The translations under genes and the position numbers were made by a program. From assembly GCA_001600495.1 (NCBI GenBank), contig BCKE01000108.1, positions 1 through 45,285 of the forward strand: 45,285 nt of DNA, given 5' to 3'. The notes beneath the pieces are model-generated. The model saw only the letters and a list, made by a program, of their open reading frames with translations, did no database searches and had not been told where the DNA came from. This DNA is from Pilasporangium apinafurcum (lineage: Eukaryota > Oomycota > Peronosporomycetes > Pythiales > Pythiaceae). Of this stretch, positions 1 through 44,993 are shown in pieces. Position 1 is the first letter of the stretch. Every line of letters starts with the position of its first letter.

Positions 1-2060
1 AGACAAAATCACTCTTGGTGAACCCGAAGCTCCAAGTCCAAGAACCGAGGACCTCGCGTTCTCGTCAAGTTTATTGTTCGATTGACTCCACGTCATTTGT
101 CTCGACGTGAGTAACTCCACGTTACTCTGTGTCATAAATCAATAAATCCGTTAGCTAGTCACTCATATGATCAACGTCTTCAATGTTATCCATCGGTTCC
201 TCCGGTGGCTCAACTGACAAAAACACACCTTGAGCCAAGAAGTTGTAGTTGGGTAGTCCTAGCGCTACACGGAGTTCTCGTATGTTGACAGACAATTGTA
301 GGTCGGTTGACCCATTAAGTCGCATTGTAATGGTGCGGAACACATTATCTTCACGATCATTGTCACTTTTACTTGGCTTCCGATACGCTGATTGGATGAA
401 AGTCAAGTGTATGACTTCTGATTGGCTGAAATACGACGAACTTGAAGGACGTTGGTGGGCGAAGGTGGCAACTTGAACGCAAAATGAAAAGTGAATTAGA
501 TAGAGAACTTAGTTCGCTAGCACTACATCTAAGCTCCCTTTCAATGCATGTTTTCCTAATCTGATTACGATCAGTTTTCTACTTTCTTCCTTTACACATG
601 TATTTATATGCAACTATGTATTTCTGACTATTTTCCCTCTTAATGTATTAAAATCACTTAAGGTATGTAATGTCGTCTGGCCTCGAACACAAGGTCAGGC
701 ACATGCCGACGCCACGCTTGTCCCTTGCGTGCGAGGTCAGGCATGTGTTACAATCATCATGCCTTTCAGTGTTCTGCATTGCATCTAAATGTTGCATTTG
801 CCGAAACGTAGCGGTTTCAGGGATTGAGAGTGGTGTGCCCTCCAGCTGATGGGCATGTGTCATAGCCCAATGAGTTTGAGCAATTTCTCCAACTTGAATA
901 TCTGAGCGATTGACGAGAAACTCGTCAATGACACGGGCAGCCTCTTGAACCCGGGAAGCGGTTGCGCGACGGATTCCTGTCGCCTCCGCTGCAGCCTGTT
1001 TGGCTGCAAACACAAACACTTCCATTATAAATGGACCAACCACCTTTCGGCGCTTGTAGTGATTAGCCCGAGCTTCAGCTATCTGGGAAAGAAAATTCTC
1101 CTCATTTAATGCAACAAAGTCTTTCTAGGCAGTGCTGAGGCTTGATTTATGGTATATCTTGCGGTCTCTGCGAATGGATTTTTGATTGTAGGACTGAATT
1201 GCACGAGCAACTCGTTCCTCAACCATATCACAGAAGTATTCAAACTGCACTCCTCATCGAATGAAAATCGTGAATCCTCCACCCGCAATGATGTTCTACT
1301 CGTCTTTGTGATATCATCGATCTTGACTGCAACTTGAGCTAGTGTCTGCAACACTAGTTATGGATATATATATTGCTCCTTCCTCAAAATGTCTACCCCT
1401 TCATGGGCATTCGAAGAGTTTTTCATAAAACCGTTCTACTGAGTATATTTAGCACAGCAAATAGGGGTGCAACTAGGAGTAAGACATCCTAATTCTGGGT
1501 GACATTCTGTTTATATATATGAAAACAGAGTTTCCATGTCTAAATCAGGGTCTAAATCGATCGATTTGCATTTCGAATAGACAATTTGGTTGGTGATCAC
1601 AATAAATGAGTTAATAAAACTCTATGTAATTTCCTATGTATAAATGAATGAAATATAAACCCTTCATGCTAATAACTCGACGCTTCAGGTTGACGACCTT
1701 TCAGCCCCAAAAGATCTTAACCGAACCAATATGATAACCGGCCCAACTGTATATAACCATATGGGTTCACTATTAAAACTTATCCGATCCAATAATAAAA
1801 CCCATGGGTGCCCACTTCATATGGCCCATGAGTTTTCGATCAACTTGGACAGTGCCCATTTATGGGTTGCTTTATCAAAAAGCGCAATTGATTGGCGTCG
1901 GACGTCATCAATCAAGAGGAAAGGAAAGAGAAAAATCGAAAGAGATTTACTCTTTTGGAGGAAAATTAGGAGCTGAATTATTGTTTTAATAAAGCTACCT
2001 ACAAACTGAAATGAATGANTGATGCTCGAGTGTCCAATTCGAGCATAACCGTAAATAATG
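1..2060. other. Gene-poor left flank
   Basis: No gene I can support fully lies here. The stretch has short open frames, AT-rich DNA around 1360-1660, and a cluster of ATGGGT/ACCCAT words at about 1750-1870 resembling the palindromic words of the dispersed repeat at 2074-2184. One minus-strand open stretch at 654-1122 is described separately. Confidence 0.5.
654..1122 (-). pseudogene. Possible decayed coding exon, unknown
   Basis: An uninterrupted minus-strand frame runs from a possible splice acceptor (CCTAG just above 1122) to a stop at 654. Its first part is alanine-rich and helical-looking (the AAKQAAAEATGIRRATASR region); its last third contains scattered Cys and His but no zinc-finger spacing I recognise. 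There is no clear start codon at the 5' end. A second minus-strand frame at 1106-1354 might be an upstream piece, but no donor joins them. It could be a relic of a mobile element or of a host gene. I do not recognise the family. Confidence 0.2.
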
Positions 2061-2073
2061 GGCAACCGCACCT

Positions 2074-2184
2074 AGCAGAAGTTCGCATCCCTACACACAG
2101 TAAGAAATCGTACTTCGGCAAACCCGTTCGAGTTTGGACTGTTTTCAGACCTACTGGGTCTGACATGTAATGGAGACCCATTAC
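2074..2184 (-). repeat. Dispersed 111-bp repeat, copy 1
   Basis: Read on the minus strand, these 111 bases match 43956-44066 on the plus strand at 100 of 111 positions with no gaps. The unit carries two neighbouring short dyads: a TCAGACCCA/TGGGTCTGA pair and a CAAACCC/GGGTTTG pair. Both are perfect in the other copy and eroded here. The flanks of the two copies are unrelated, so this is an interspersed element fragment and not a segmental duplication. Confidence 0.75.
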
Positions 2185-2473
2185 AATAGTGGTTGTGGTA
2201 TGACCGTGAACCGTGACAAGAACGCATCCAAAACTATTCTCCAAAAACTCAAGAATAGAAAACGTCCCGGCAGTTTCAGCAGGAGTAGAACTTAGAATGG
2301 ATGAAAAAGAGTCTTTTGGTGCCATTAGGTGGCTGAGGGATTGCTAGGTCTCGTTGCAGAGCCTAGTGATATTATGTTCGGGTGGACATTTTCAGTGAAA
2401 CCCGCAATATATGTAAACGTTATCAATTGGTTATGTGCTAAAAGCAGATCATTCGATCGATCTTCACATGCGT

Positions 2474-5404: not shown

Positions 5405-5630
5405 ACAGAATTGTAGGCTAAACGGAAAGAAGAAAGTAGGCAGATGAAGATGGGAAACTAAGTAGTAGCTGCGTCCAATCGAGGACAGATACTTCATCCA
5501 TGCGTGGGGTAATACTTGGCTGTGTGTGTGTTGAGACCAGCTCCTTGTTGTGTCGGCCATCTGATTGAGTTGTACTCCATGTTAAATCCTGTTCCTTGTC
5601 TTCTTGCTCATGATAGTGTGATAGCCTCCA

Positions 5631-6603
5631 TTACCGCGACCGTGAGTGTGAGCGCGAATGGCGACGTCGATGACTTCGACGGGGAGATGGCGATCGAGAG
5701 CGCGAGCGGTGACGGCGACTACGAGACCGAGGCGGCGACCGAGATCTAGACCGACTCGTACGGTCACTTCCACGTTCCTGCACAAAATATTCGCCACATA
5801 TTTTTATCAGTACAGTTATGATAAGATACAAGGACAAAATGGTCAAGTGTTACCTCTCTGATTCGGACTCGCTCTCCATCGACCTCGCGATCGTCCAGTT
5901 TGCGAATGGCACGATCCATTTCATCGTAGGTCGCAAAAGACGCCGTGCCATTGCCGCGTCGATCCACGTCAGTGTGCACGACATCACCACCCTCACGTAG
6001 AAAATCTTTGAGATCCTGCCAGCTCATGGACGTCGGCAAGTGGCTGATGGTCACCCGATATTGCGTGCCGCGTTGGCTGCACATATATCACCATCGTGAA
6101 AGCGTGTTAACCAAGAGTACCAGACTATAATACATCAAATCTATAAGTTTTCCCCACCGTCCACCACCCTCTCCACCACGTGTGCCACCATGCGATATCT
6201 CGACCCGCAATTGGCTGCCATTGAAGTCAGATCTGCAACCGGCAAGACATCATTCATGAATGAGACCTTTTGTTGCGTTAACCACAATAAGAAAGACCTA
6301 TCGCCGCTGTAGGACTGCTTACACACCCATTCATCGCACGTACAGCATCCGAAGCATCTTGATCCTGTTCATATTCCTGTGAAAAAGAGAAAATACAGGT
6401 GCATATAGATAAAGATAATTCATGCAACATCACTAAGGAGCTGATCAAAACATCAGTTCTCGACGTACAATGAACGCGAATGGCGGGGGACGCGGTGGGA
6501 ACTTGACAGTGAGATTGACAATGCGTCCATAACGCTCAAATTTTGCCTCTAGATCGCGCTCGTTCACATCATCCGGAAGATTCCCGACAAACACACGCGC
6601 CAT
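5631..6603 (-). CDS. SR splicing factor, SF2/ASF (SRSF1) type, 5 exons
   Basis: Nuclear pre-mRNA splicing factor. Proposed exons are 6603-6469, 6376-6327, 6232-6158, 6076-5854 and 5777-5631, giving 209 residues; all introns are GT-AG and the frame holds at every join. RRM1 begins with RNP2 VFVGNL at residues 4-9. A Gly/Arg-rich hinge (about 76-90) follows. RRM2 contains SWQDLKD at 105-111, the diagnostic heptapeptide of the SF2/ASF pseudo-RRM. The C-terminal tail (about 162-209) is almost entirely Arg-Ser dipeptides, the target of SR kinases. Known SRSF1 proteins are about 250 residues, so this one is slightly short, mainly in the RS domain. The short exons (50 and 75 nt) make this gene easy to miss or truncate in automatic prediction. 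Confidence 0.93.
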
Positions 6604-9345: not shown

Positions 9346-10316
9346 GTTTCCTAGAATGAACAGATGATGTCAACATTTATGAGGTATCTTGAATAAGTAT
9401 CACCAATGTTGCAATCCGGTATTTACCGTCCCTGGAAACGAGAAATTTAAAATTTACCGTGGATCGAAAATGTACCCATGTTGAATGGAACATTCAATGG
9501 ATGCAAACAAAAAAGCCCCAATATACTCTGCATTCTGCACAGCCATTAATGTGCTCGCTGGTCTACATCGTAATGGAAAAGTCCTTCGACACTGGTTGAA
9601 ACCACTGGGAAGATAGCTACCCATATACTACGTAGCTACGATTGCAGCTTGTGAATAGCAAAGACGCGAAATGATGAATGCATCAAGAAAGAGAAAGAAG
9701 AAGATGCACATGGAAGTACACACATCAACGACATCCTCAATCTTGAAATTGCAAAATGTACGTAAAACACGGTCAAGAGTTCTTTTTAGCTACCTTCATT
9801 ACCACCATCCAGAGGTGAATCATCAACGAAAGGAGTTTCTGTTGAGGATATCCCTGTTAAAGGTTTGCTAGAGCTGGTGCCACGGTTCATGACTCCTCCA
9901 TCCACAGCCAACATCACTGTGCTGACAATATCCTTCTAGAACAATGTGCTGGCATACAGATGCAGTCGGAGTGGCTTCAACGTATGATGGTTCAAGCGAT
10001 TGAAAGATGGGCGAAGCTCTTGCACATCCAGGAATCCAGAAAAGATGTCAGCAACCAGATGAATGAGAGTGAGAAACAAAGTACATAGTGTCACAGAAGA
10101 GTGATAAGCCATGTCATGCGCAATGATCAGCAACTAAGCACCGGATTTCCTTTCAAAAAAATCTTTTTACATCTTAGAGACACATAAGCTCAGGATTTGT
10201 TGAATTATGACGGTTTACTGAGAACTCACCCAATTTTCCTTCTTCATCAAATTCCTAAAATCTACTCATGTATTTCCTGTATATTTCATGTAATGCAGTC
10301 GCTTGACTGTTGTTGT
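9346..10316. other. Non-genic stretch before the mobile island
   Basis: The first part is the SELENOF-like 5' flank. From 9665 to 9945 there are short protein-like runs, one reading ...VEDIPVKGLLELVPRF... up to a TAG near 9940, but they do not join in frame by any splice I can find. I call no gene; a decayed gene is possible. Confidence 0.4.
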
Positions 10317-10481
10317 TAGCCTTTATCCCTATTTATCATATCTATAGGCTGGACTTTGGCCTGGCTTTTTAAGCAAACAGATACACATCGATAGAAGCAG
10401 AAACTTATTTCAAATTTTCCACAATGAGCTCTTTTCAGCGCCATTCTTTTTCTCAAGAACGGATGCGAAGCGATGAAGCAT

Positions 10482-10633
10482 CAGAAAGTCTTTCGGTATC
10501 TTCACCGCAAGTTCGTCCTTGATAGAGATGTAAACACTGCTAGAAACATCTTTCTCAAGAATGAACATTTACTTGTCTGGATTCATCGAGTCCAGGTGTC
10601 GGCGATGCTCACTTCACGGTTGTCCAATCTTAG
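10482..10633 (+). pseudogene. 3' fragment of a Fanzor2/TnpB-like gene (stub A)
   Basis: Only the end of the nuclease gene survives. DRDVNTARNIFLKN is the RuvC-III/zinc-finger end signature of TnpB and Fanzor proteins (canonical DRDxNAARNI); the zinc-finger Cys pairs and everything upstream are missing. After FLKNEHLL a one-base shift restores a second frame reading SSPGVGDAHFTVVQS and then TAG. The same SPGVGD C-terminus occurs in the relics at 38.97-39.9 kb and 40.5 kb, so the three belong to one family. It cannot encode a nuclease. Confidence 0.7.
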
Positions 10634-10678
10634 CTGGTTTTTGCTGGTTGAGTCAGATCCAAAGAAAAAAACAGGAGG
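10570..10678 (+). repeat. Conserved 3' tail of the Fanzor2-like family, copy A
   Basis: Bases from about 10570 to 10678 align with 40541-40645. They cover the SPGVGD coding end, the stop codon, and some 45 further bases, including TTTTGCT, GTTGAGTC and CAGGAG blocks. The similarity then stops abruptly in both copies, as expected at a transposon right end. In TnpB systems the guide (omega) RNA overlaps the gene's 3' end and runs to the right end, so this is where a guide RNA scaffold would lie. That role is inferred, not shown. Confidence 0.5.
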
Positions 10679-10695
10679 CCCTTATATGATCTCTT

Positions 10696-10754
10696 TAACC
10701 TTTATCCCCCACTTGTACAACGCGTTGTACAAATGATGTGGGGAATAAAGGTTA
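10696..10754. repeat. Imperfect palindrome with TAACCTTTAT ends
   Basis: A perfect 20-bp core (TTGTACAACG and its inverse, centred after 10722) is flanked by arms beginning TAACCTTTAT on both sides. The right arm carries 5 extra bases (ATGAT region). Its outer words match the terminal words of the island at 10317 and 12285. It may be a fold-back end or two transposon ends meeting. Confidence 0.75.
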
Positions 10755-11177
10755 GAACTAAGATTGCCTTGAGACTAGACTTTAGGATTCATTGGATGGA
10801 GAGACTCCTTCGTGGCTGTTGCTGCGTGCGCAATCATCTTGAAAGGCCATGTTGATGATCAATCGCGTTTCCAGAGAAATTAAATTATATACCTTGGGTG
10901 GAGAAAAAGATATATGGAGTTAGAAAAATCAAGTATGCATCACAAGGTACTTCTCAGGAGTTTGAGAGTTTCTCATTTTGGTGGCGTCTCTTGAATGAAT
11001 CGTTTCCGGCTTTTCAATAGCGAGGCGTATTGAATTGAAGTATTTACCACCTCAAGTCCATCTATTGAGTGTCGCTTCAACATTCGCCAAAACAAAAAGA
11101 ACCGCAGCTTTGAGAAACAGCATAATCAAAAAATCAAACAACTATGAGGCGTCCTTGTTTTTGAACGTTGTGATAAA

Positions 11178-12642: not shown

Positions 12643-13869
12643 TCACGCACGAGCTCCGCATGCGGGGGCGGTGTCTGCATCCGCAGCAACAGATGATCCG
12701 CCTGTTGGAGCATTGCCGCTACCACCAAACGAACCACCGGATGGAGGACTGCCACTGCCACCACCAAATGATCCACCCGATGGAGCAGTACCACTACCAC
12801 CACCACCCGTAAGCATCCCCGTGTCTTCACCATCGTTCATCACACCACCATCCGCAGTCAATGTCGCAGCACCAACAATATCATGCGAAACTGTCATGTC
12901 AATACCGATGGAGATCCACGAGAAAACACCATCTTCCACGGTATCACCAAGAAGCACATAGTTCAGAATAGGATCAAACTCATCTGCAGCTGCTTCTTGA
13001 TAAACACGATCATCGGCCGTGGCAGTGTCAGATTGTGTGTTGGTGACATAGTACTCTGTCGCTTCGACAGCATCGATCAGATCTTGATCGAAAAAGACCT
13101 GGGTAATTTCTGGAGACACGTAGTCAGTGTAGGTGTTGTTGCTTTGGACCGTACCATTTGTGGCCGTGAGGACGTGGATGTGAGTAGTTCGACCAGAGTA
13201 ATGACCTGGGAAAAGTGAGTGAAAGGTGACAACCCCATCCGAGTCAGTTGGGTATAGACCACGCAAGAAGGTAGCATCCAGATTCGATGTATCGCTGGTG
13301 TCACCATTACCATCAGCAATGATACCCGAGTACACACCCGTGGCATTGCAGTTCCAAACGTTGATGTAGAGGTTTTCCACTGGTTCACATGTGTTCACAT
13401 CCACAAGTTGCAACTCAAAGATGTGATCCACACCTGGTTCATCTTCACGAATATCATTGCGGATGTACTCGCCATCGACAAAGTATGGTCCTTGTTCCAC
13501 TTCTGGTTCGAGAAGACATTGTACTTCGTCACCAAAGAGCACACTTGCATCCGTGGCAGATGAGACACCAGACAAGCTAGACAAGTGACTGATCGAGGCA
13601 TAGGTGGCAGCATCCAAACGACGTTCACGACGAAGTTGTTGGATCTTGGCAGCACGACGAGCGATAGCACGATCCTGAAGTTTGCGACTGGCATCCGAGT
13701 TGGCACAAGCTGCAAGCGAGCGTTTGGCGTTGTTCACGAAGAGTTTACGTTGCGCAGCTTGTTCTTCGGTGAGTTCACGATGGGCAGCACCAGGATGAGC
13801 ATCGACGAGTTGCATGAGAGCAAGTGAGGCGATGGTAGCAGTAGTGATGAGAGGGAGGACGCGAACCAT
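12643..13869 (-). CDS. Secreted intradiol dioxygenase-like protein, left copy
   Basis: 408 residues, single exon. The signal peptide (about 1-24) ends at VDA, just before HPGAAHRELTEEQ. A basic pro-region (about 25-110) follows. The intradiol domain starts at GPYFVDGEYIRNDI (about 128). The expected non-haem Fe3+ ligands are all present: Tyr181 (TGVYSG), Tyr225 (PGHYSG), His231 and His233 (HIH). The family opens aromatic rings between adjacent hydroxyls, so an extracellular role on plant or other phenolics is possible. The true substrate is unknown, and the WNC motif replaces the usual WHxN/WHC. The C-terminus is a Gly/Ser/Pro repeat region. It is the mirror copy of 15597-16880, but its last residues (ADADT onward) differ and it has one fewer 12-residue repeat. 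Confidence 0.9.
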   Translation of the reverse strand: MVRVLPLITTATIASLALMQLVDAHPGAAHRELTEEQAAQRKLFVNNAKRSLAACANSDASRKLQDRAIARRAAKIQQLRRERRLDAATYASISHLSSLSGVSSATDASVLFGDEVQCLLEPEVEQGPYFVDGEYIRNDIREDEPGVDHIFELQLVDVNTCEPVENLYINVWNCNATGVYSGIIADGNGDTSDTSNLDATFLRGLYPTDSDGVVTFHSLFPGHYSGRTTHIHVLTATNGTVQSNNTYTDYVSPEITQVFFDQDLIDAVEATEYYVTNTQSDTATADDRVYQEAAADEFDPILNYVLLGDTVEDGVFSWISIGIDMTVSHDIVGAATLTADGGVMNDGEDTGMLTGGGGSGTAPSGGSFGGGSGSPPSGGSFGGSGNAPTGGSSVAADADTAPACGARA

Positions 13870-15539: not shown

Positions 15540-16828
15540 ATTTACCTTCTCCTGTGAACATTCAAACAAACAACCTATACCAATCCGTCTACAAACATGG
15601 TTCGCGTCCTCCCTCTCATCACTACTGCTACCATCGCCTCACTTGCTCTCATGCAACTCGTCGATGCTCATCCTGGTGCTGCCCATCGTGAACTCACCGA
15701 AGAACAAGCTGCGCAACGTAAACTCTTCGTGAACAACGCCAAACGCTCGCTTGCAGCTTGTGCCAACTCGGATGCCAGTCGCAAACTTCAGGATCGTGCT
15801 ATCGCTCGTCGTGCTGCCAAGATCCAACAACTTCGTCGTGAACGTCGTTTGGATGCTGCCACCTATGCCTCGATCAGTCACTTGTCTAGCTTGTCTGGTG
15901 TCTCATCTGCCACGGATGCAAGTGTGCTCTTTGGTGACGAAGTACAATGTCTTCTCGAACCAGAAGTGGAACAAGGACCATACTTTGTCGATGGCGAGTA
16001 CATCCGCAATGATATTCGTGAAGATGAACCAGGTGTGGATCACATCTTTGAGTTGCAACTTGTGGATGTGAACACATGTGAACCAGTGGAAAACCTCTAC
16101 ATCAACGTTTGGAACTGCAATGCCACGGGTGTGTACTCGGGTATCATTGCTGATGGTAATGGTGACACCAGCGATACATCGAATCTGGATGCTACCTTCT
16201 TGCGTGGTCTATACCCAACTGACTCGGATGGGGTTGTCACCTTTCACTCACTTTTCCCAGGTCATTACTCTGGTCGAACTACTCACATCCACGTCCTCAC
16301 GGCCACAAATGGTACGGTCCAAAGCAACAACACCTACACTGACTACGTGTCTCCAGAAATTACCCAGGTCTTTTTCGATCAAGATCTGATCGATGCTGTC
16401 GAAGCGACAGAGTACTATGTCACCAACACACAATCTGACACTGCCACGGCCGATGATCGTGTTTATCAAGAAGCAGCTGCAGATGAGTTTGATCCTATTC
16501 TGAACTATGTGCTTCTTGGTGATACCGTGGAAGATGGTGTTTTCTCGTGGATCTCCATCGGTATTGACATGACAGTTTCGCATGATATTGTTGGTGCTGC
16601 GACATTGACTGCGGATGGTGGTGTGATGAACGATGGTGAAGACACGGGGATGCTTACGGGTGGTGGTGGTAGTGGTACTGCTCCATCGGGTGGATCATTT
16701 GGTGGTGGCAGTGGCAGTCCTCCATCCGGTGGTTCGTTTGGTGGTAGCGGCAATGCTCCAACAGGCGGATCGTTTGGGGGTAGTGGCAATGCTCCAACAG
16801 GCGGATCGTTTGTTGCTGCGGATGCAGA
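15540..16828 (+). repeat. Right arm of the inverted duplication
   Basis: Mirror of 12674-13926. It is 36 bp longer because of one extra in-frame unit coding GGSGNAPTGGSF (two tandem units at about 16738-16809, one in the left copy). Beyond 16828 the copies no longer align. Confidence 0.92.
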
Positions 16829-16880
16829 TACTACAACTTCGACAACGACCACTTCAGTTGGTTGCACGGCCCGCAACTGA
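15597..16880 (+). CDS. Secreted intradiol dioxygenase-like protein, right copy
   Basis: 427 residues, single exon, with the same signal peptide, pro-region and catalytic domain as 12643-13869, including ligands Tyr181, Tyr225, His231 and His233. It differs in the tail: three GGSF-type repeats in tandem and a Thr-rich end (TTTSTTTTS) finishing VGCTARN. The Gly/Thr/Ser-rich tail could be glycosylated or anchor the protein in the cell wall; that is inference. The start follows identical leader sequence in both copies. Divergent orientation and near-identity point to a recent inverted duplication or ongoing gene conversion. Confidence 0.9.
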   Translation: MVRVLPLITTATIASLALMQLVDAHPGAAHRELTEEQAAQRKLFVNNAKRSLAACANSDASRKLQDRAIARRAAKIQQLRRERRLDAATYASISHLSSLSGVSSATDASVLFGDEVQCLLEPEVEQGPYFVDGEYIRNDIREDEPGVDHIFELQLVDVNTCEPVENLYINVWNCNATGVYSGIIADGNGDTSDTSNLDATFLRGLYPTDSDGVVTFHSLFPGHYSGRTTHIHVLTATNGTVQSNNTYTDYVSPEITQVFFDQDLIDAVEATEYYVTNTQSDTATADDRVYQEAAADEFDPILNYVLLGDTVEDGVFSWISIGIDMTVSHDIVGAATLTADGGVMNDGEDTGMLTGGGGSGTAPSGGSFGGGSGSPPSGGSFGGSGNAPTGGSFGGSGNAPTGGSFVAADADTTTSTTTTSVGCTARN

Positions 16881-37454: not shown

Positions 37455-38940
37455 TCACCTTTGATTCCATTCAGTCGACGAAAAAATGCCCTACCTTTAT
37501 GTCATTGTATTGATGAAAATGCATAGGCCACAAGTGTCGAAATGTGGAGAATTTTAACATGCGGAAAGTTCTGTTGGCATGTACCGCCATGATTGGCTGC
37601 GCTCGAGTATCCAAACGTGATCAAAACCCTTAAAATCAGTAGGATGCAATGTGTAAATTCTATTGCATTCTATTTCGAAGAAGCTACGTTCAGATTCGAT
37701 TGCATGAACGATAAAACAAAAGGAATCGATAGAGAACTATTTCGCTATGCAAATCCAAAAGAGCTCTTAAGAAATCCGGTTAAGAGGTCAAATCTTTATG
37801 TTCTTCCATTCAAAAGTAACACGGATGCCGGTCAATAGCAAAAAAAAGAGTGCAATGCGAATATGGGCATCATGTTATGACAACGAGTGCGCATTATTCA
37901 TGCTGTGGGTAATAGAGATATCCATGACAATTATTTTTTTAAACCCGAATCGACCCATCGGTTGGGCAGTAGGAAATATTACGATCTGATCCGAGCCGTA
38001 TTCGAAATCTTGCAAACCATAACGAACCGACCTGATTAAAATAGCGATGATCGCCAGTAATGCAAGGCAACTGGTTTTTTTCGCTATCGTACTGCAGGCG
38101 TCCGAGTAGTTGGATCTGCCCGTGGAACTGGAGGCGAGAACGTACAAAACATACCTACACTGCGCAGATCAGCGTTGGGTAGCTTGGAATGCGACAACCT
38201 TTTACATCCCGTATGTCGTCATGAGAAACTTTCAGCTCCAAAAACCGTTCAGTAATTTTTGAAATTTAACCGTCTTTAGAAATTGATATTTATCTCAAAA
38301 ATAATGAACAGCATGCTATATAATACTACGTGTTCAAAAATATTAGCTATGGGAGGGTATATTGTACTAGAAGGGTTAGGACTCAGATTGAGCTGTGGGA
38401 CCATGGGTCAATGTAACATAACTTTTTCTATAACTTTGATGTTTGTTTCAAAATTAATAAATAATTTGTTATTACTACATGCCCGTCAGTATAAAATATA
38501 TGAGGAAACCTAATTCTAATACCTAAATAGGTACAGTGTTTACAAAAATATTCCACTTGAAGTACTTTCTTGAATATCAATGAAGTGAGTGCACTGACCT
38601 ATCAGAGTGAAGTAAATGCGCGTCTTTTTGATTGCTCAAGTGTCCTCAGCACCGTAGGATCACAGCAATTCAAGATGAATCACAAAACACAACGCACTTT
38701 GAGTCGACGCATCCATTCTTAGCAGTGGCTTAATTGAGTACGCAAAAAAATCTGCGAAGAACAGCTTATTACGGCATCAGCGCGATCAAAGACGGTCAGA
38801 AAGAATCGACTCTTGACAGCAAATATAGCTCCAGACTCAAAGGTGATTAACGTAAGAAAAGCGTCCAAGCTATCCAATCACCGCAGGAGATTGCAAAGTT
38901 ATTAAGAGATGCGAAAGTATCGAATGATAACTCTTGCTTT
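37455..38940. other. Gene-poor stretch before the second mobile island
   Basis: AT-rich sequence with scattered short frames, for example 37593-37838 (81 residues, no motif recognised). Around 38700-38830 there are lysine/arginine-rich runs that could be eroded transposon coding DNA, but I cannot assign them. Confidence 0.45.
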
Positions 38941-38966
38941 CTGTTTTCTGATAAGTCAACTTAGAT

Positions 38967-39935
38967 CTAACAAGTACTTGGACAAGTAGATACCTCGACG
39001 AAGGCAGTCCCGACACCTGGACTAGATTGGTCCAGGAGTAAACATTTGCTCTTAAGAAAAATAGTTTTGAGGGCGTTGATATCGTGATCTGCAATCAAAT
39101 TGCACAATAAACGCGAGAATTCTCTCTGTGCCTGGATACTGTAATTGATTCTCCTACAGCAAGAACATGTTTTCGAAGTATCGTCTTCTTTGCATTCAAT
39201 CGCACGTCCCCCTGATCGCTTCATCTTGTACTCCAGCATTTTCTTGGATTTATAGCGATCGCGCACGATCGCTTCTTGGTAGTCAATGCAAACTCTTTCA
39301 CTTGCAGGATATAAAGATAAAACTGTCCTTCTCACGTTCTCTGCGATTGAATCGAATATTGCATTTCTGGAAGAGGTTCCTTGTTTTAAGCTCTTGATGC
39401 ATCTTGTCAAAATATCTTGGAAAAAAACGAATGATAGTTTTTTGAGTAGATTTAATCGATCGAGAACGAATTTTGATTGACGTTGAGTCATCCTTTCTTG
39501 ACTTGAACTTCATTTCAGGAAAAGACACCTTCTTTTCTTCCCTTTTAGAGAAAAACAAAGCTCTCGACGATTTGATAGCTTTGTAAAGTCTTGAAGGTAG
39601 GATTCATGACTTCTCCCGGAACTTTGAGATGACTTTTAGCTTTTCGGGAGGAAAATATTGCGCTAGCATTTTCTTTTGGCAAATAGGTCGATATTCATCA
39701 CGCAATTCTTCCTTGGATGGAGTATACGCCTTCTTGATATCATCACATTTTGGTTCTTCGCTTTTCTTGTTGATGGTCCCAATCAGCTTGTTATAAATCG
39801 ATTGATGTGTCCCAAAGATCTTGTTCAATAGTACTTGCTGTTCTTTGGTAAGGTAAAGCTTCAATTTAATCACACTGTTTGGAGGCGCTTTCTTCTCATT
39901 TGTACCTTTTTTCCTCGCGTTTCTTTCAAAGTTTT
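38967..39935 (-). pseudogene. Fanzor2/TnpB-like RNA-guided nuclease pseudogene
   Basis: On the minus strand the N-terminal region reads IKLKLYLTKEQQVLLNKIFG then THQSIYNKLI, the classic TnpB/OrfB opening (wedge region), preceded by a Lys/Arg-rich segment. The frame meets one TGA (39604-39606) but continues to 39298 through FKSRKDDSTSIKIRSRSIK and FNRREREKDSFIF, typical of the family. After another stop the gene resumes in a shifted frame (to 38967): ECKEDDTSKTCSCCRRIN (RuvC-II Glu, first zinc-finger Cys pair), FSRLLC (second pair; the first Cys is Arg), DHDINALKTIFLK (RuvC-III; DRD has become DHD), and SSPGVG. RuvC-I is not seen and appears deleted. It is clearly dead but recognisable end to end. 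Confidence 0.8.
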
Positions 39936-40500
39936 ACTAGCTAGTGAGAGTTGATCCTTCCGCTTGCGTTTCCATGTCTTCGTTTGAGTCTTAGTAACAT
40001 TGTTTATCAATATAAATCACGATTTGAATTGTAAACTCTTGAAACATTTACGCGAAGAGATTGTGTTCAAATCCTCTTTGGAAGGTAATCATAATTTTTG
40101 GGATCTGTGCATGTCATGGCAACTCACGATACTACTTGTTTATGTTTTCTTGTTTTCGTCAAGCACTTCATTCTCGTCGTGCTTGCATCCTTAGTTCATC
40201 GATCTGGTATGTGTGTTCGGTGCACAACTTGCTGTGAAGTGATTGGTGAGGTATGATGGGATGGTCGAATTTATTTACGCTGCACAACACCATCTATGAG
40301 TCTTTTGGTTCTTATTTTTCTTCAGAAAACAACCTATTTTCATTTTTTTGAAGATTTTATAATGAATGGTTATGGAGATTTTGGCTCATAATAAGTTCCT
40401 CAGTTGATACCTATTCTGATATTTCTATTGACTAATATATAAACAAATAAAACTTGGACATAAAAGCATTTCTATCTATCTTAGGAAAGTATTGACGAAG
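39936..40500. other. Flank between the two Fanzor2-like relics
   Basis: The first 60 bases contain the basic leader of the minus-strand relic in another frame (TKTWKRKRKDQLSLASKTL), implying a further frameshift near 39935. The rest is AT-rich with no gene seen. Confidence 0.4.
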
Positions 40501-40591
40501 AACTGGTGACAGTTGTTTTATGGAACTTTTAGACAAATACTTACTTGCCTGGAGTCCAGGTGTTGGAGATGGCTACTTCGCGGTTGCCTAG
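40501..40591 (+). pseudogene. 3' fragment of a Fanzor2-like gene (stub D)
   Basis: Only the last codons remain, reading MELLDKYLLAWSPGVGDGYF then AVA and TAG (40589-40591). The SPGVGD signature matches the relics at 10.6 kb and 39.0 kb. It points away from the minus-strand relic, so the two are separate insertions. Confidence 0.6.
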
Positions 40592-40645
40592 TCTTAGCTA
40601 GCTTTTGCTAGTTGAGTCGGACCCAAACAAAAGCAGGAGATCCTC
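40541..40645 (+). repeat. Conserved 3' tail of the Fanzor2-like family, copy D
   Basis: Pairs with about 10570-10678. Beyond the stop codon both copies keep CTTAGCT, TTTTGCT, GTTGAGTC, GGACCCAAA-type and CAGGAG blocks for about 45 bases and then diverge sharply, marking the likely right end of the element. Confidence 0.5.
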
Positions 40646-40924
40646 CTTGAGTTACTGGTATCTATTGGTATCGCATATGATCCTTGAGGTGGGGTCAACA
40701 TGCATTTGCAATTGAAGTATCTCCTGATGCAGTAAAGCTATTGTTATATGACATTTTTTTGCATACCGCTCTTCAAAGAAAATCGCTCACAACTTAAAAT
40801 CTATCTTTAACGATTGTTGGGTACTCTTGTTTGTTGCCACAGACTTTATATGCTACCATCACCCACTGATGTATGAACATGGTAGGTATACTCGCCTCAA
40901 AGTGATGTTACATTCACCACCCAT
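40646..40924. other. Flank of stub D, no gene seen
   Basis: Short AT-rich sequence leading to the stop codon of the minus-strand gene. If stub D is a TnpB-type right end, the first bases after 40645 occupy the place of a guide sequence. Confidence 0.35.
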
Positions 40925-43369: not shown

Positions 43370-43955
43370 ATTCAGCGCAGCGTGTGAGCTGGAAACATAG
43401 GAAAGAGAAAGAGGTAGAAAGAAAGAGAGCGCCCATTTATATAATATACCTTTGTCCCTCGCTTCCGATTACTCCTATACGAACACCGCACACATATTAT
43501 ACACACCAATTTAACTATACTCCTGTTAGGGAACCAGCGAGCAAAGTAGGGAAGCAGTTCCAGTGTCTTGTACCTTGTATATTCGGTCTGAAACAGTGGG
43601 TGATCGCAAGTGAAGCGCATGAAGCGGCAGGATGTGACATGAACATCTGCCATCTTGCCAGCGTGGCTTGGCGTCTGTCGCCGTTTGTCCGCTTCGCCTT
43701 GTCTTTTTTTTCTGAAAGTGTCGCTCATAGGTGGATGATCCTACTCGTTACATTTCTGACCAAAGGTTTATTCTATGCAGCTATTGCAGATTGGGTCATT
43801 GGGTGGTATCATTTTTAACGTGTTTTTGGATAGAACCAAAACAAGGTGATCTCTGTTCAGTTGGCTGGCAGATGTCGGACGCCGAATTCCACTGCTCAAC
43901 GTGATTCAACAAAATAGATTTGACACATAGTGGTGTCAATTTTTGTACACTAGGT
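43370..43955. other. Upstream region of the unknown gene
   Basis: It holds a possible extra minus-strand exon (43728 to about 43530) and a pyrimidine-rich acceptor near 43390. The remaining sequence up to the dispersed repeat shows no gene. Confidence 0.35.
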
Positions 43956-44066
43956 GTAATGGGTCTCCACTACATATCAGACCCATTGGGTCTGAAAACG
44001 GGACAAACCCGAACGGGTTTGATAAAGTACGATTTCTTACTGTGTGTAGGGATGCGAACTTCTGCT
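43956..44066 (+). repeat. Dispersed 111-bp repeat, copy 2
   Basis: Matches 2074-2184 (opposite strand) at 100 of 111 positions. In this copy both dyads are perfect: TCAGACCCA T TGGGTCTGA, and CAAACCC GAAC GGGTTTG. It lies just left of the Tc1 relic's 3' end. Confidence 0.75.
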
Positions 44067-44127
44067 ACAGTCCCGGCAATAAAGATAAAAGCACCCTGTT
44101 TTTCTAACTTTTTGCGAATAAAGTGCG

Positions 44128-44993
44128 CGCCATAAATATATGGACACGAAAAAAACGTTATTTTCTGAAATAGCTTTTTGAATTCTAAAACTTAGAGGCT
44201 GAAACTTGGTATATATATAATATAAAATACTTGAATACTGGTGACAAAGTTTGAAACAATAACTCACAATATCCACGGCACTAGAGCAATATATAAATTT
44301 AGAGAGTGCGACATAAGTGTATGGACATTTTAAGAATTGCGCTTGGAGGGGCATTATATTAGCGAAATGGCGGAGAAAAGCGGATGAATTCGCTAGTTAA
44401 TAGTCTATCTTCCTTCCATCAGACCTTATAGTTGCTACACATCTCTCAGGCATCGAGTTAACCAGGTTGACTAGGAGATGATCTGAGATATCATCCCATG
44501 CCTCTGAAATTGCATCCTTGAGCTCTGCAACGGAATTAAACTGGTGTCCATTACGATAGACACGTCGCGCCATGATTCCCCATACATTTTCAATAGGATT
44601 GAGGTCAGGCGACAGGGTTGGCCACTTTAAATTACTGATGTTGAGGTCGGAGAGAAACTCTTTCGTTGACTTGGAGCGATGAATACTGGTATTATCATGT
44701 TGAAATACATAGTTTCCATCGTAGACATCATCTCCAAAGGGCAGAAGATAGTTGGTAAGGATTTGCTGGTATTCATCGGAATCTATGTTCCCTTGCGGAT
44801 AGGCCAAACGCGTCTTACCCAAGGCTGAGATTCCTCCCCACACCATCACTGACCCACCACCCGAATTCCGACTCCAAAATGTTTTCTTCTCCTTTCGTAA
44901 GTTGTGCCAATAGTATTTGCAGCCATCCGAACCATCAAGATTAATTTTCTTCTCATCAGAGAAGATTATTTTACTCCAATTGTAAGGTGCTTA
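44128..44993 (-). mobile_element. 5'-truncated Tc1/mariner element (DD34E)
   Basis: On the minus strand, from about 44993 to a stop at 44397, the frame codes for most of a Tc1-type catalytic domain. First Asp in IIFSDEKKIN, second in FQHDN, and SPDLNPIENVW ends the triad with Glu; exactly 34 residues lie between the second Asp and the Glu (DD34E). An in-frame TAA sits just upstream of the surviving part, and the DNA-binding HTH domains are absent, so it is a dead copy. The 3' side contains CATAAATATATGGACAC (about 44130) and a related CATAAGTGTATGGACAT (about 44312), which look like terminal repeat and internal binding-site sequence. The exact end is uncertain. Confidence 0.85.

What the first reader, a model, noticed from the sequence alone, without database searches (positions are those of the whole stretch)
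38967..39935. Decayed Fanzor2/TnpB-like nuclease in a eukaryotic gene landscape
The minus strand shows a TnpB opening (LYLTKEQQVLLNKIFG), central FKSRKDD and basic blocks, then TSKTCSCC, DHDINA and a C-terminal SPGVG. Two stops, at least one frame change, loss of one zinc-finger Cys, DRD turned to DHD, and a missing RuvC-I show decay. Fanzor proteins are eukaryotic RNA-guided nucleases related to TnpB. This family's intact members in the same genome would be candidates for new RNA-guided nucleases.
Basis: partly seen in the sequence, partly recalled or inferred. Interest (0 to 1): 0.75.

Follow-up and report, generated by a model that had tools for sequence, protein, structure and literature searches.

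The report
Dead Fanzor2 transposon that still jumped
A broken gene for a Fanzor2-type RNA-guided DNA-cutting enzyme sits inside a small jumping element of a bacterial kind (IS607) in a eukaryote's genome; the element kept being copied after its enzyme died, and uninterrupted relatives remain in the same genome.

Summary
The minus strand carries a broken TnpB/Fanzor gene (PF07282 E 6.9e-12, PF12323 E 2.6e-6). It belongs to a large family: 150 of 852 PF07282 candidates in this 36.5-Mb genome were scored and all 150 pass the cut-off. Uninterrupted relatives carry the published Fanzor fingerprint (DPG plus alternative Glu), match TnpB-like L79 best and group with it. The three serine-recombinase (TnpA) matches found all lie about 1.1 kb upstream of a Fanzor zinc ribbon, and the window keeps homologous DNA at 40125-39904. 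So this is an IS607-type Fanzor2 element, 38879-40490, with no inverted repeats or target duplication seen.

It did not simply rot in place. A second copy, 99.0% identical with the same lesions, sits on another contig with unrelated flanks; a third (83%) shares the same 342-bp deletion removing RuvC-I. The dead element was thus moved, presumably in trans. A young Fanzor2-only family (40 places scored for each end, about 60 candidates) is the best candidate for activity. A new, very abundant member of a known kind.

The parts
38879..40490 (-). whole IS607-type element (subfamily A1, non-autonomous copy), 1612 bp
   Evidence: 99.0% match to a second copy on contig C95 that stops at both ends, flanks unrelated
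40477..40490 (-). 5' (left) terminus ACTTTCCTAAGATA
   Evidence: shared start, in exact or related form, in 5 copies with unrelated flanks: window, L010, L050, L044, L051
39904..40125 (-). DNA homologous to the C-terminal part of IS607-type TnpA, with stops; overlaps the upstream extension of the Fanzor frame
   Evidence: tblastn with the TnpA frame of L057, 38% over 74 aa, E 1.5e-8 against a small set; the same DNA matches the upstream extension of the P0001 frame at 47%
39604..39873 (-). Fanzor2 N-terminal piece, HTH_OrfB_IS605
   Evidence: PF12323 E 2.6e-6
39298..39558 (-). Fanzor2 middle piece (FKSRKDD)
   Evidence: tblastn of P0001 aa 97-243 over 39891-39409, 42.5%; no Pfam match over a cut-off
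39265..39266 (-). junction of a 342-bp deletion removing RuvC-I and the stretch up to the RuvC-II region
   Evidence: same gap in window, L010 and L011; absent from 5 of 9 aligned copies, the ninth has a different gap
38967..39491 (-). Fanzor2 C-terminal open frame; zinc-ribbon homology at 39060-39251
   Evidence: PF07282 residues 81-144, E 6.9e-12
38881..38940 (-). 3' end, in the family a candidate omega/right-end RNA scaffold end (terminal stem around a small hairpin)
   Evidence: chosen helices form in 91.2% of cells in 21 A1 copies, covariation not above shuffles; the window's own end and that of L010 do not form the hairpin when folded alone
38879..38892 (-). 3' (right) terminus, family consensus GATCTCCTGAGG + YG
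   Evidence: fixed end in the A1 copies aligned, flanks unrelated
10316..10690 (+). separate family-A ghost copy: left end plus last part of the Fanzor2 gene and tail, middle missing
   Evidence: paired 5' and 3' matches across the genome; residues LDRDVNTARN
40552..40656 (+). fragment of another family-A 3' end, about 60 bp from the left end of the A1 element, opposite orientation
   Evidence: blastn matches to 3' ends of family-A copies

Best explanation
The window holds a dead, non-autonomous copy of an IS607-type transposon whose family encodes a serine-recombinase transposase (TnpA) and, overlapping its 3' part, a Fanzor2 RNA-guided nuclease. Shown: gene identity, element ends, TnpA-homologous DNA, and that copies with the nuclease-killing deletion sit at three places, so at least two moves followed it. 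Inferred: movement in trans by TnpA from sister copies acting on the ends (recombination without target duplication), and that in live copies the 3' end is transcribed as the omega RNA whose guide is the flanking DNA, so that Fanzor2 cuts the empty site and favours retention, as published for TnpB and proposed for Fanzor. The window copy can no longer make a nuclease; at most it could lend its ends or a guide RNA.
For: Profiles. Relatives with DPG and Glu six residues before the zinc finger; among 29 prokaryotic hits whose positions were printed, 0 have Glu there, and of the 23 with a RuvC-I motif found, 0 have DPG. Best PDB match TnpB-like protein L79 (9b0l), E 6.3e-25; no Fanzor1 entry recognised by name among 25 hits at E<=10. 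Tree of 27 rows: families A and C with L79, support 97/91. Three of three Resolvase matches lie about 1.1 kb upstream of a PF07282 match, same strand; one of them, L057, is closest to 3lhf (E 2.2e-8) and 3ilx, first ORF of ISC1904 (that these are IS607-type is recalled). TnpA-homologous DNA inside the window. Second copy with the same lesions and other flanks; third with the same deletion.
Against: No intact TnpA found: the three Resolvase matches are short or broken. The window's TnpA-homologous DNA matches the upstream extension of the Fanzor frame better (47% against 38%), so which frame was coding there is open. The bases before ACTTTCC differ among the five A1 left ends, so the exact left junction is not proved. 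Omega-RNA covariation is not above shuffles, and the window's own end does not fold that way alone. No expression data. The assembly has N gaps and several scans score only the best candidates.
Confidence: 0.83

Rival explanations
1. A single Fanzor gene rotted in place; the second copy is a segmental duplication or a haplotig.
For: Two copies 99% identical; draft assembly with gaps.
Against: Similarity stops at both element ends, with about 1.4 kb of unrelated C95 flank in hand on one side and 0.5 kb on the other; the same left end occurs in L050, L044 and L051, the same right end in 20 other aligned copies, L010 included; an older copy shares the deletion.
Confidence: 0.06
2. The gene is a bacterial TnpB (contamination or recent transfer), not a Fanzor.
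For: The scanned proteins all match guided_TnpB (NCBIfam NF040570), the window piece below its cut-off; P0002 has the canonical Glu of TnpBs.
Against: SUV3, UTP25 and VPS26 neighbours in the window; matches on many contigs; Fanzor fingerprint in families A and C; identity at most 28% in the 10 of 181 phage records listed and 27.5% in the 15 of 2823 plasmid records listed, none of either set at 60% or more.
Confidence: 0.03
3. It is a Fanzor1 carried by a DDE (Tc1/mariner) transposon, as known in Pythium.
For: A DDE_3 transposase frame lies at 44397-44849 (PF13358 E 4.2e-14) and mariner-associated Fanzor1 is published for Pythium ultimum (PMC3627910, passages).
Against: No inverted repeats or TA duplication seen at the ends; no Fanzor1 structure recognised at E<=10, although I could not check that such entries are in that copy; TnpA-homologous DNA in the element.
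Confidence: 0.03
4. The copy is still useful as a ghost locus: it makes a guide RNA that loads into Fanzor2 made elsewhere.
For: The right end is kept; ghost loci with working omega RNAs are published for Spizellomyces (PMC10432273, passages).
Against: The window's end and that of its sister do not fold into the family hairpin alone; the last 60 bases carry 9 of their 16 differences; covariation not above shuffles; no RNA data.
Confidence: 0.05

Closest known systems
Fanzor2 in IS607-type elements (Bao and Jurka 2013; Yoon 2023; TnpB-like L79 = PDB 9b0l, of mimivirus by recall)
   Same: DPG and alternative Glu in uninterrupted relatives, OrfB HTH and zinc ribbon, serine-recombinase TnpA just upstream, no TIR or TSD seen
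   Different: Window copy lost RuvC-I and most of TnpA; here at least 150 zinc-ribbon places including deletion derivatives; no intact TnpA found; the 2013 table lists one Fanzor2 each for three Phytophthora species (passage)
TnpB of IS607 elements (ISXfa1 and relatives)
   Same: Gene order, element without TIR or TSD
   Different: Eukaryotic host, Fanzor fingerprint, N-terminal extensions
Ghost loci of Spizellomyces punctatus Fanzor1 (Saito 2023)
   Same: Gene-less or dead copies that keep the ends
   Different: Those are bounded by inverted repeats; here none were seen and the family is Fanzor2
Abundant Fanzor1 families: CRe-1/2/3 Helitrons of Chlamydomonas and CMe-1A of Cyanidioschyzon, about 150 copies each for CRe-1 and CMe-1A (passages)
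   Same: High copy number; A1 at first looked 5'-truncated with a fixed 3' end as CRe does
   Different: Closer comparison shows a shared left end with internal deletions; Fanzor2, not Fanzor1. High copy number as such is not new

Membership tests
Fanzor2 (as relatives P0001, P0003) | RuvC-I DPG motif | tested here: met
   AIDPGV and ALDPGV
Fanzor2 (as relatives P0001, P0003) | Alternative Glu about six residues before the zinc finger, canonical Glu absent | tested here: met
   CEEHYTTKTC, CERYTSISC; LLPTF at the canonical place, where P0002 has FLEKF
Fanzor2 (as relatives) | Groups with Fanzor2 rather than Fanzor1 | tested here: inconclusive
   With L79 at 97/91 and no Fanzor1 structure recognised at E<=10, but no Fanzor1 row was in the tree
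Fanzor2 (the window copy itself) | RuvC-I DPG | tested here: not met
   Removed by the 342-bp deletion; the window copy is a fossil of the family, not a working member
Fanzor2 (the window copy itself) | Alternative Glu, zinc ribbon, third Asp | tested here: inconclusive
   Glu kept, one of four Cys lost, DRD is DHD
IS607-type transposon | Serine-recombinase TnpA upstream of TnpB/Fanzor2 | tested here: met
   For family A: three of three Resolvase matches beside Fanzor genes. Window: only homologous DNA of the C-terminal part, frame open to doubt. Family C: no TnpA
IS607-type transposon | No TIR, no TSD, precise ends | tested here: met
   A1; family C, 34 left and 36 right ends; exception: one family-C copy (L034) has an 11-bp repeat on both sides and L025 a 6-bp one
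IS607-type transposon | Crossover at a shared core dinucleotide | tested here: inconclusive
   Family C has YG at both ends (34 of 34 left, 36 of 36 right), but A1 left ends do not all fit
OMEGA system (omega RNA-guided nuclease) | RNA-guided cleavage with a 3'-end RNA | not testable with these tools
   Only partial structural compatibility seen
Fanzor1 in Tc1/mariner | TIRs with TA duplication | tested here: not met
   None seen at A1 or C ends

The most novel reading that the evidence does not exclude
Family C, the young relative of the window copy, spreads with Fanzor2 as its only gene. Some 60 candidate copies share exact ends and a left flank that fits RCYG in 32 of 34 cases and looks like a target-adjacent motif, with no transposase in the element and only damaged TnpA recognised in the genome. 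The RNA-guided nuclease would then drive copying itself, through breaks that are repaired from existing elements, which would also leave rewritten, fast-changing 3' ends and chimeric copies.
Probability: 0.1. Interest if true: 0.8.

Novelty: new member of a known kind. Interest (0 to 1): 0.5.

Why it matters
Fanzor2s are eukaryotic RNA-guided nucleases related to IS607 TnpBs. In what I read, high copy number is described for Fanzor1 families; I saw no such account for Fanzor2. This genome holds uninterrupted, young, degraded and ghost copies side by side, so the old question whether Fanzor/TnpB helps an element to spread without its own transposase can be tested on real insertions. The window copy shows that elements with a dead nuclease still spread, so nuclease activity is not needed in cis.

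Tried and rejected
Helitron-like one-ended spread or 5'-truncated retrotransposition: suggested, dropped because five A1 copies share a left end and several shorter ones are internal deletions or fold-backs; family C has similar numbers of left- and right-end candidates, 59 and 61, 40 of each scored. RVT_1: 10 matches in the genome. Helitron_like_N: none, but the control rang nowhere, so absence is not shown.

Omega RNA: RNAalifold's own consensus holds the terminal stem for family A but pairs the same 5' arm elsewhere in A1; the structure then counted was my choice by eye. It fits 87.8% and 91.2% of cells, but each measure is reached by 57 to 210 of 500 shuffles, and beating slid versions is expected of a structure drawn from the sequences. 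Single folds: hairpin in 17 of 23 (A 4/6, A1 7/11, C 6/6), terminal stem of 4 or more pairs in 12 of 23 (A 5, A1 5, C 2); in the window neither. Against letter shuffles, z was -1.2 to -1.7 for four of six and about -3.3 for two. Rows dropped: A1 L014, L045, L049 (broken ends or near-duplicate), L042 left out though in hand, L018 the same place as L047; family A L059, L067 and the window ghost copy.

Relatives in viral contigs with P0001: none confirmed; with the RuvC profile 2 loci. Rfam on the window at gathering threshold: none. Empty sites for A1, A and C insertions among loci in hand: none seen. Tree: 42 loci were listed in the script, which stopped on an error after L120 (29 of 33 read had usable positions); 25 were listed, 21 entered, with 6 rows from this genome or the PDB.

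The host was not identified; oomycete is my guess from recall.

Full report
1. Observation. The minus strand at 38967-39873 shows the named motifs in three reading pieces. The C-terminal piece matches PF07282 (OrfB_Zn_ribbon, now Cas12f1-like_TNB) at E 6.9e-12 and the N-terminal piece PF12323 at E 2.6e-6, both over their cut-offs. The middle piece has no profile match over a cut-off, but tblastn with an uninterrupted relative covers it. The window codes for SUV3, UTP25 and VPS26, so the setting is eukaryotic. I did not identify the species.

2. Family. A search of the own genome scored 150 of 852 PF07282 candidates, and all 150 passed the cut-off. With the window's C-terminal frame the closest place after itself is contig C95 (98%), then C16 (69%). 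Four groups emerged: A (P0001, C62), A1 (the window's subfamily; 19 places with its 3' tail, the window included), C (P0003, P0004) and B (P0002, C135).

3. What the protein was. P0001 and P0003 match OrfB helix-turn-helix and zinc-ribbon profiles over cut-off and the middle OrfB profile below it, and guided_TnpB over cut-off. Both have DPG in RuvC-I and Glu six residues before the first zinc Cys, with no canonical Glu. This pair is the published fingerprint of Fanzors (PMC10711439, passages). Of 29 prokaryotic hits whose positions were printed, 0 have Glu at that place; RuvC-I was found in 23 of them and is D-hydrophobic-G in all 23 (which stopped part-way; a viral locus also lacks that Glu). 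The best PDB match is TnpB-like protein L79 at E 6.3e-25 (mimivirus by recall), and no Fanzor1 entry was recognised among 25 hits at E<=10; whether that copy holds Fanzor1 chains I could not check. In a 27-row tree families A and C group with L79 (97/91), P0002 beside them (94/79, long branch); no Fanzor1 row was available.

4. What carried it. Three Resolvase matches were found in the genome, and all three lie about 1.1 kb upstream of a Fanzor zinc ribbon on the same strand. One, L057, is closest to 3lhf (E 2.2e-8), 3ilx (ORF of ISC1904) and, weakly, 6dgc (ISC1926 TnpA, E 0.062); that these are IS607-type is recalled. The window keeps DNA homologous to the C-terminal part of this TnpA at 40125-39904 (38% over 74 aa, E 1.5e-8). 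In this family the TnpA frame overlaps the upstream extension of the Fanzor frame, and the same window DNA matches that extension at 47%; so homology is shown, the coding frame is not. Bao and Jurka describe Fanzor2 in IS607-type elements without TIRs or TSDs (PMC3627910, one section read and passages), and the ends seen here agree.

5. Ends. The A1 copies aligned share a right end GATCTCCTGAGG plus YG in front of unrelated flanks and a left end ACTTTCCTAAGATA or close to it in five copies. The element is thus 38879-40490. Family C gives the sharpest picture: in 34 left ends (32 of the 40 scored and two others) the flank reads ACCG 26, GCCG 4, ACTG 2, CCCG 1, ATCG 1, followed by a variable stretch of usually five bases (CTTGG 23 of 34) and ACTTTACC; 36 right ends (of the 40 scored) finish GGCG (30) or GGTG (6) (counted by eye from its print, L163, L174 and L182 without the script's anchor).

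6. The dead copy moved. The window copy and the C95 copy agree over 1612 bp at 99.0%, and both break off at the element ends into unrelated flanks. None of their 16 substitutions falls on the stops that end the N-terminal and middle pieces. A 342-bp deletion takes out RuvC-I and the stretch up to the RuvC-II region in the window, C95 and the 83%-identical C16 copy; five other aligned copies lack it and one has a different gap. At least two moves therefore came after the nuclease was dead. That TnpA did it in trans is inference.

7. Candidate RNA end. A terminal stem around a small hairpin fits 87.8% (A, 16 copies) and 91.2% (A1, 21 copies) of cells, but covariation does not exceed shuffles. 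Folded alone, 17 of 23 ends from three families form the hairpin and 12 of 23 a terminal stem; the window's own end forms neither. I treat this as compatible with an omega RNA in the family, not as proof, and as a sign of decay in the window.

8. Which copies may be alive. Fifteen family-C copies are 95-99% identical to L031 in the shared 3' part and 82-97% in 5' parts. L031 is about 2.66 kb; the genome has 61 right-end and 59 left-end candidates, 40 of each scored and matched. The complete L031 holds only the Fanzor2 frame, and none of the three Resolvase matches lies in family C; many other C copies have N gaps inside. P0001 in C62 is also uninterrupted, but its TnpA is broken. Published work notes Fanzor2 loci without a clear transposase (PMC10432273, passages) and, in 2013, that evidence for TnpB-only transposition was missing (PMC3627910, passages).

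9. Results that do not fit. In three of seven sister pairs that I chose, substitutions pile up in the last 60 bases (window/C95 9 of 16, P 7e-10; L015/L016 4 of 8, P 7e-5; L042/L046 9 of 36, P 7e-5); in four they do not. L042 is a chimera whose end is L040-like. In 16 family-C copies, 15 of 35 variable columns lie in the last 60 of 440 (P 8e-6). One family-C copy, L034, has an 11-bp repeat on both sides and L025 a 6-bp one. I have no proved explanation; recombination between copies is the simplest.

10. Verdict. A fossil of a known kind, Fanzor2 in an IS607-type element, in an unusually crowded genome, with sequence evidence of movement after death. Searches of the paper library (Fanzor with oomycete, eukaryotic, Pythium; IS607 with Phytophthora; Fanzor2 with IS607 and copies; Fanzor with transposase and non-autonomous) listed no paper that I recognised as describing such a Fanzor2 expansion; I opened four of the listed papers (PMC3627910, PMC10711439, PMC10432273, PMC11423790) in passages or one section, the rest I saw only as listings, and one list showed 20 of 80 papers.

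Noticed in passing
L020:2984-5056 (-), contig C135: P0002, a 691-residue Fanzor/TnpB-like frame with DPG but the canonical Glu (FLEKF), beside other Fanzor frames and a frame with transposase-like HTH domains; an 88% partial copy lies on C7. Eukaryotic Fanzors with canonical Glu were called mis-annotated TnpBs in print.
   Followed up: partly
last 60 bp of A1 and C elements, e.g. window 38881-38940: Sister copies differ much more here than in the body in 3 of 7 pairs; family C has variable blocks at -50..-43 and -18..-8.
   Followed up: partly
L034, both sides of the family-C element: 11-bp CACGACGTCAC replaces the first bases of the element and also follows its right end; L025 has TATTGG in the same way.
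   Followed up: no
L040, L055: Fold-back elements with the A1 3' end at both ends in inverted orientation.
   Followed up: partly
L042: Chimeric A1 copy: body like L046 (97%), last 60 bp like L040 (2 differences).
   Followed up: partly
window 10316-10690 and 10696-10757: Family-A ghost copy followed by a short palindrome made of left-end-like sequence.
   Followed up: partly
window 12643-13869 (-) and 15597-16880 (+): Two frames with nearly the same protein in inverted orientation, dioxygenase-like (PF00775, scanned for the first only): a recent duplication.
   Followed up: no
window 44397-44849 (-): DDE_3 transposase frame (PF13358 E 4.2e-14), Tc1/mariner type by recall.
   Followed up: no
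window 1911-2185 and 43955-44068: Repeats near both ends of the contig, also found in the 5' region of family-C elements.
   Followed up: no
L020:2-1624 (-) and 5626-6426 (+): Two further Fanzor-like frames on C135, 541 aa (cut by the end of the stretch fetched) and 266 aa; PF12323 over its cut-off in the first, below it in the second.
   Followed up: partly
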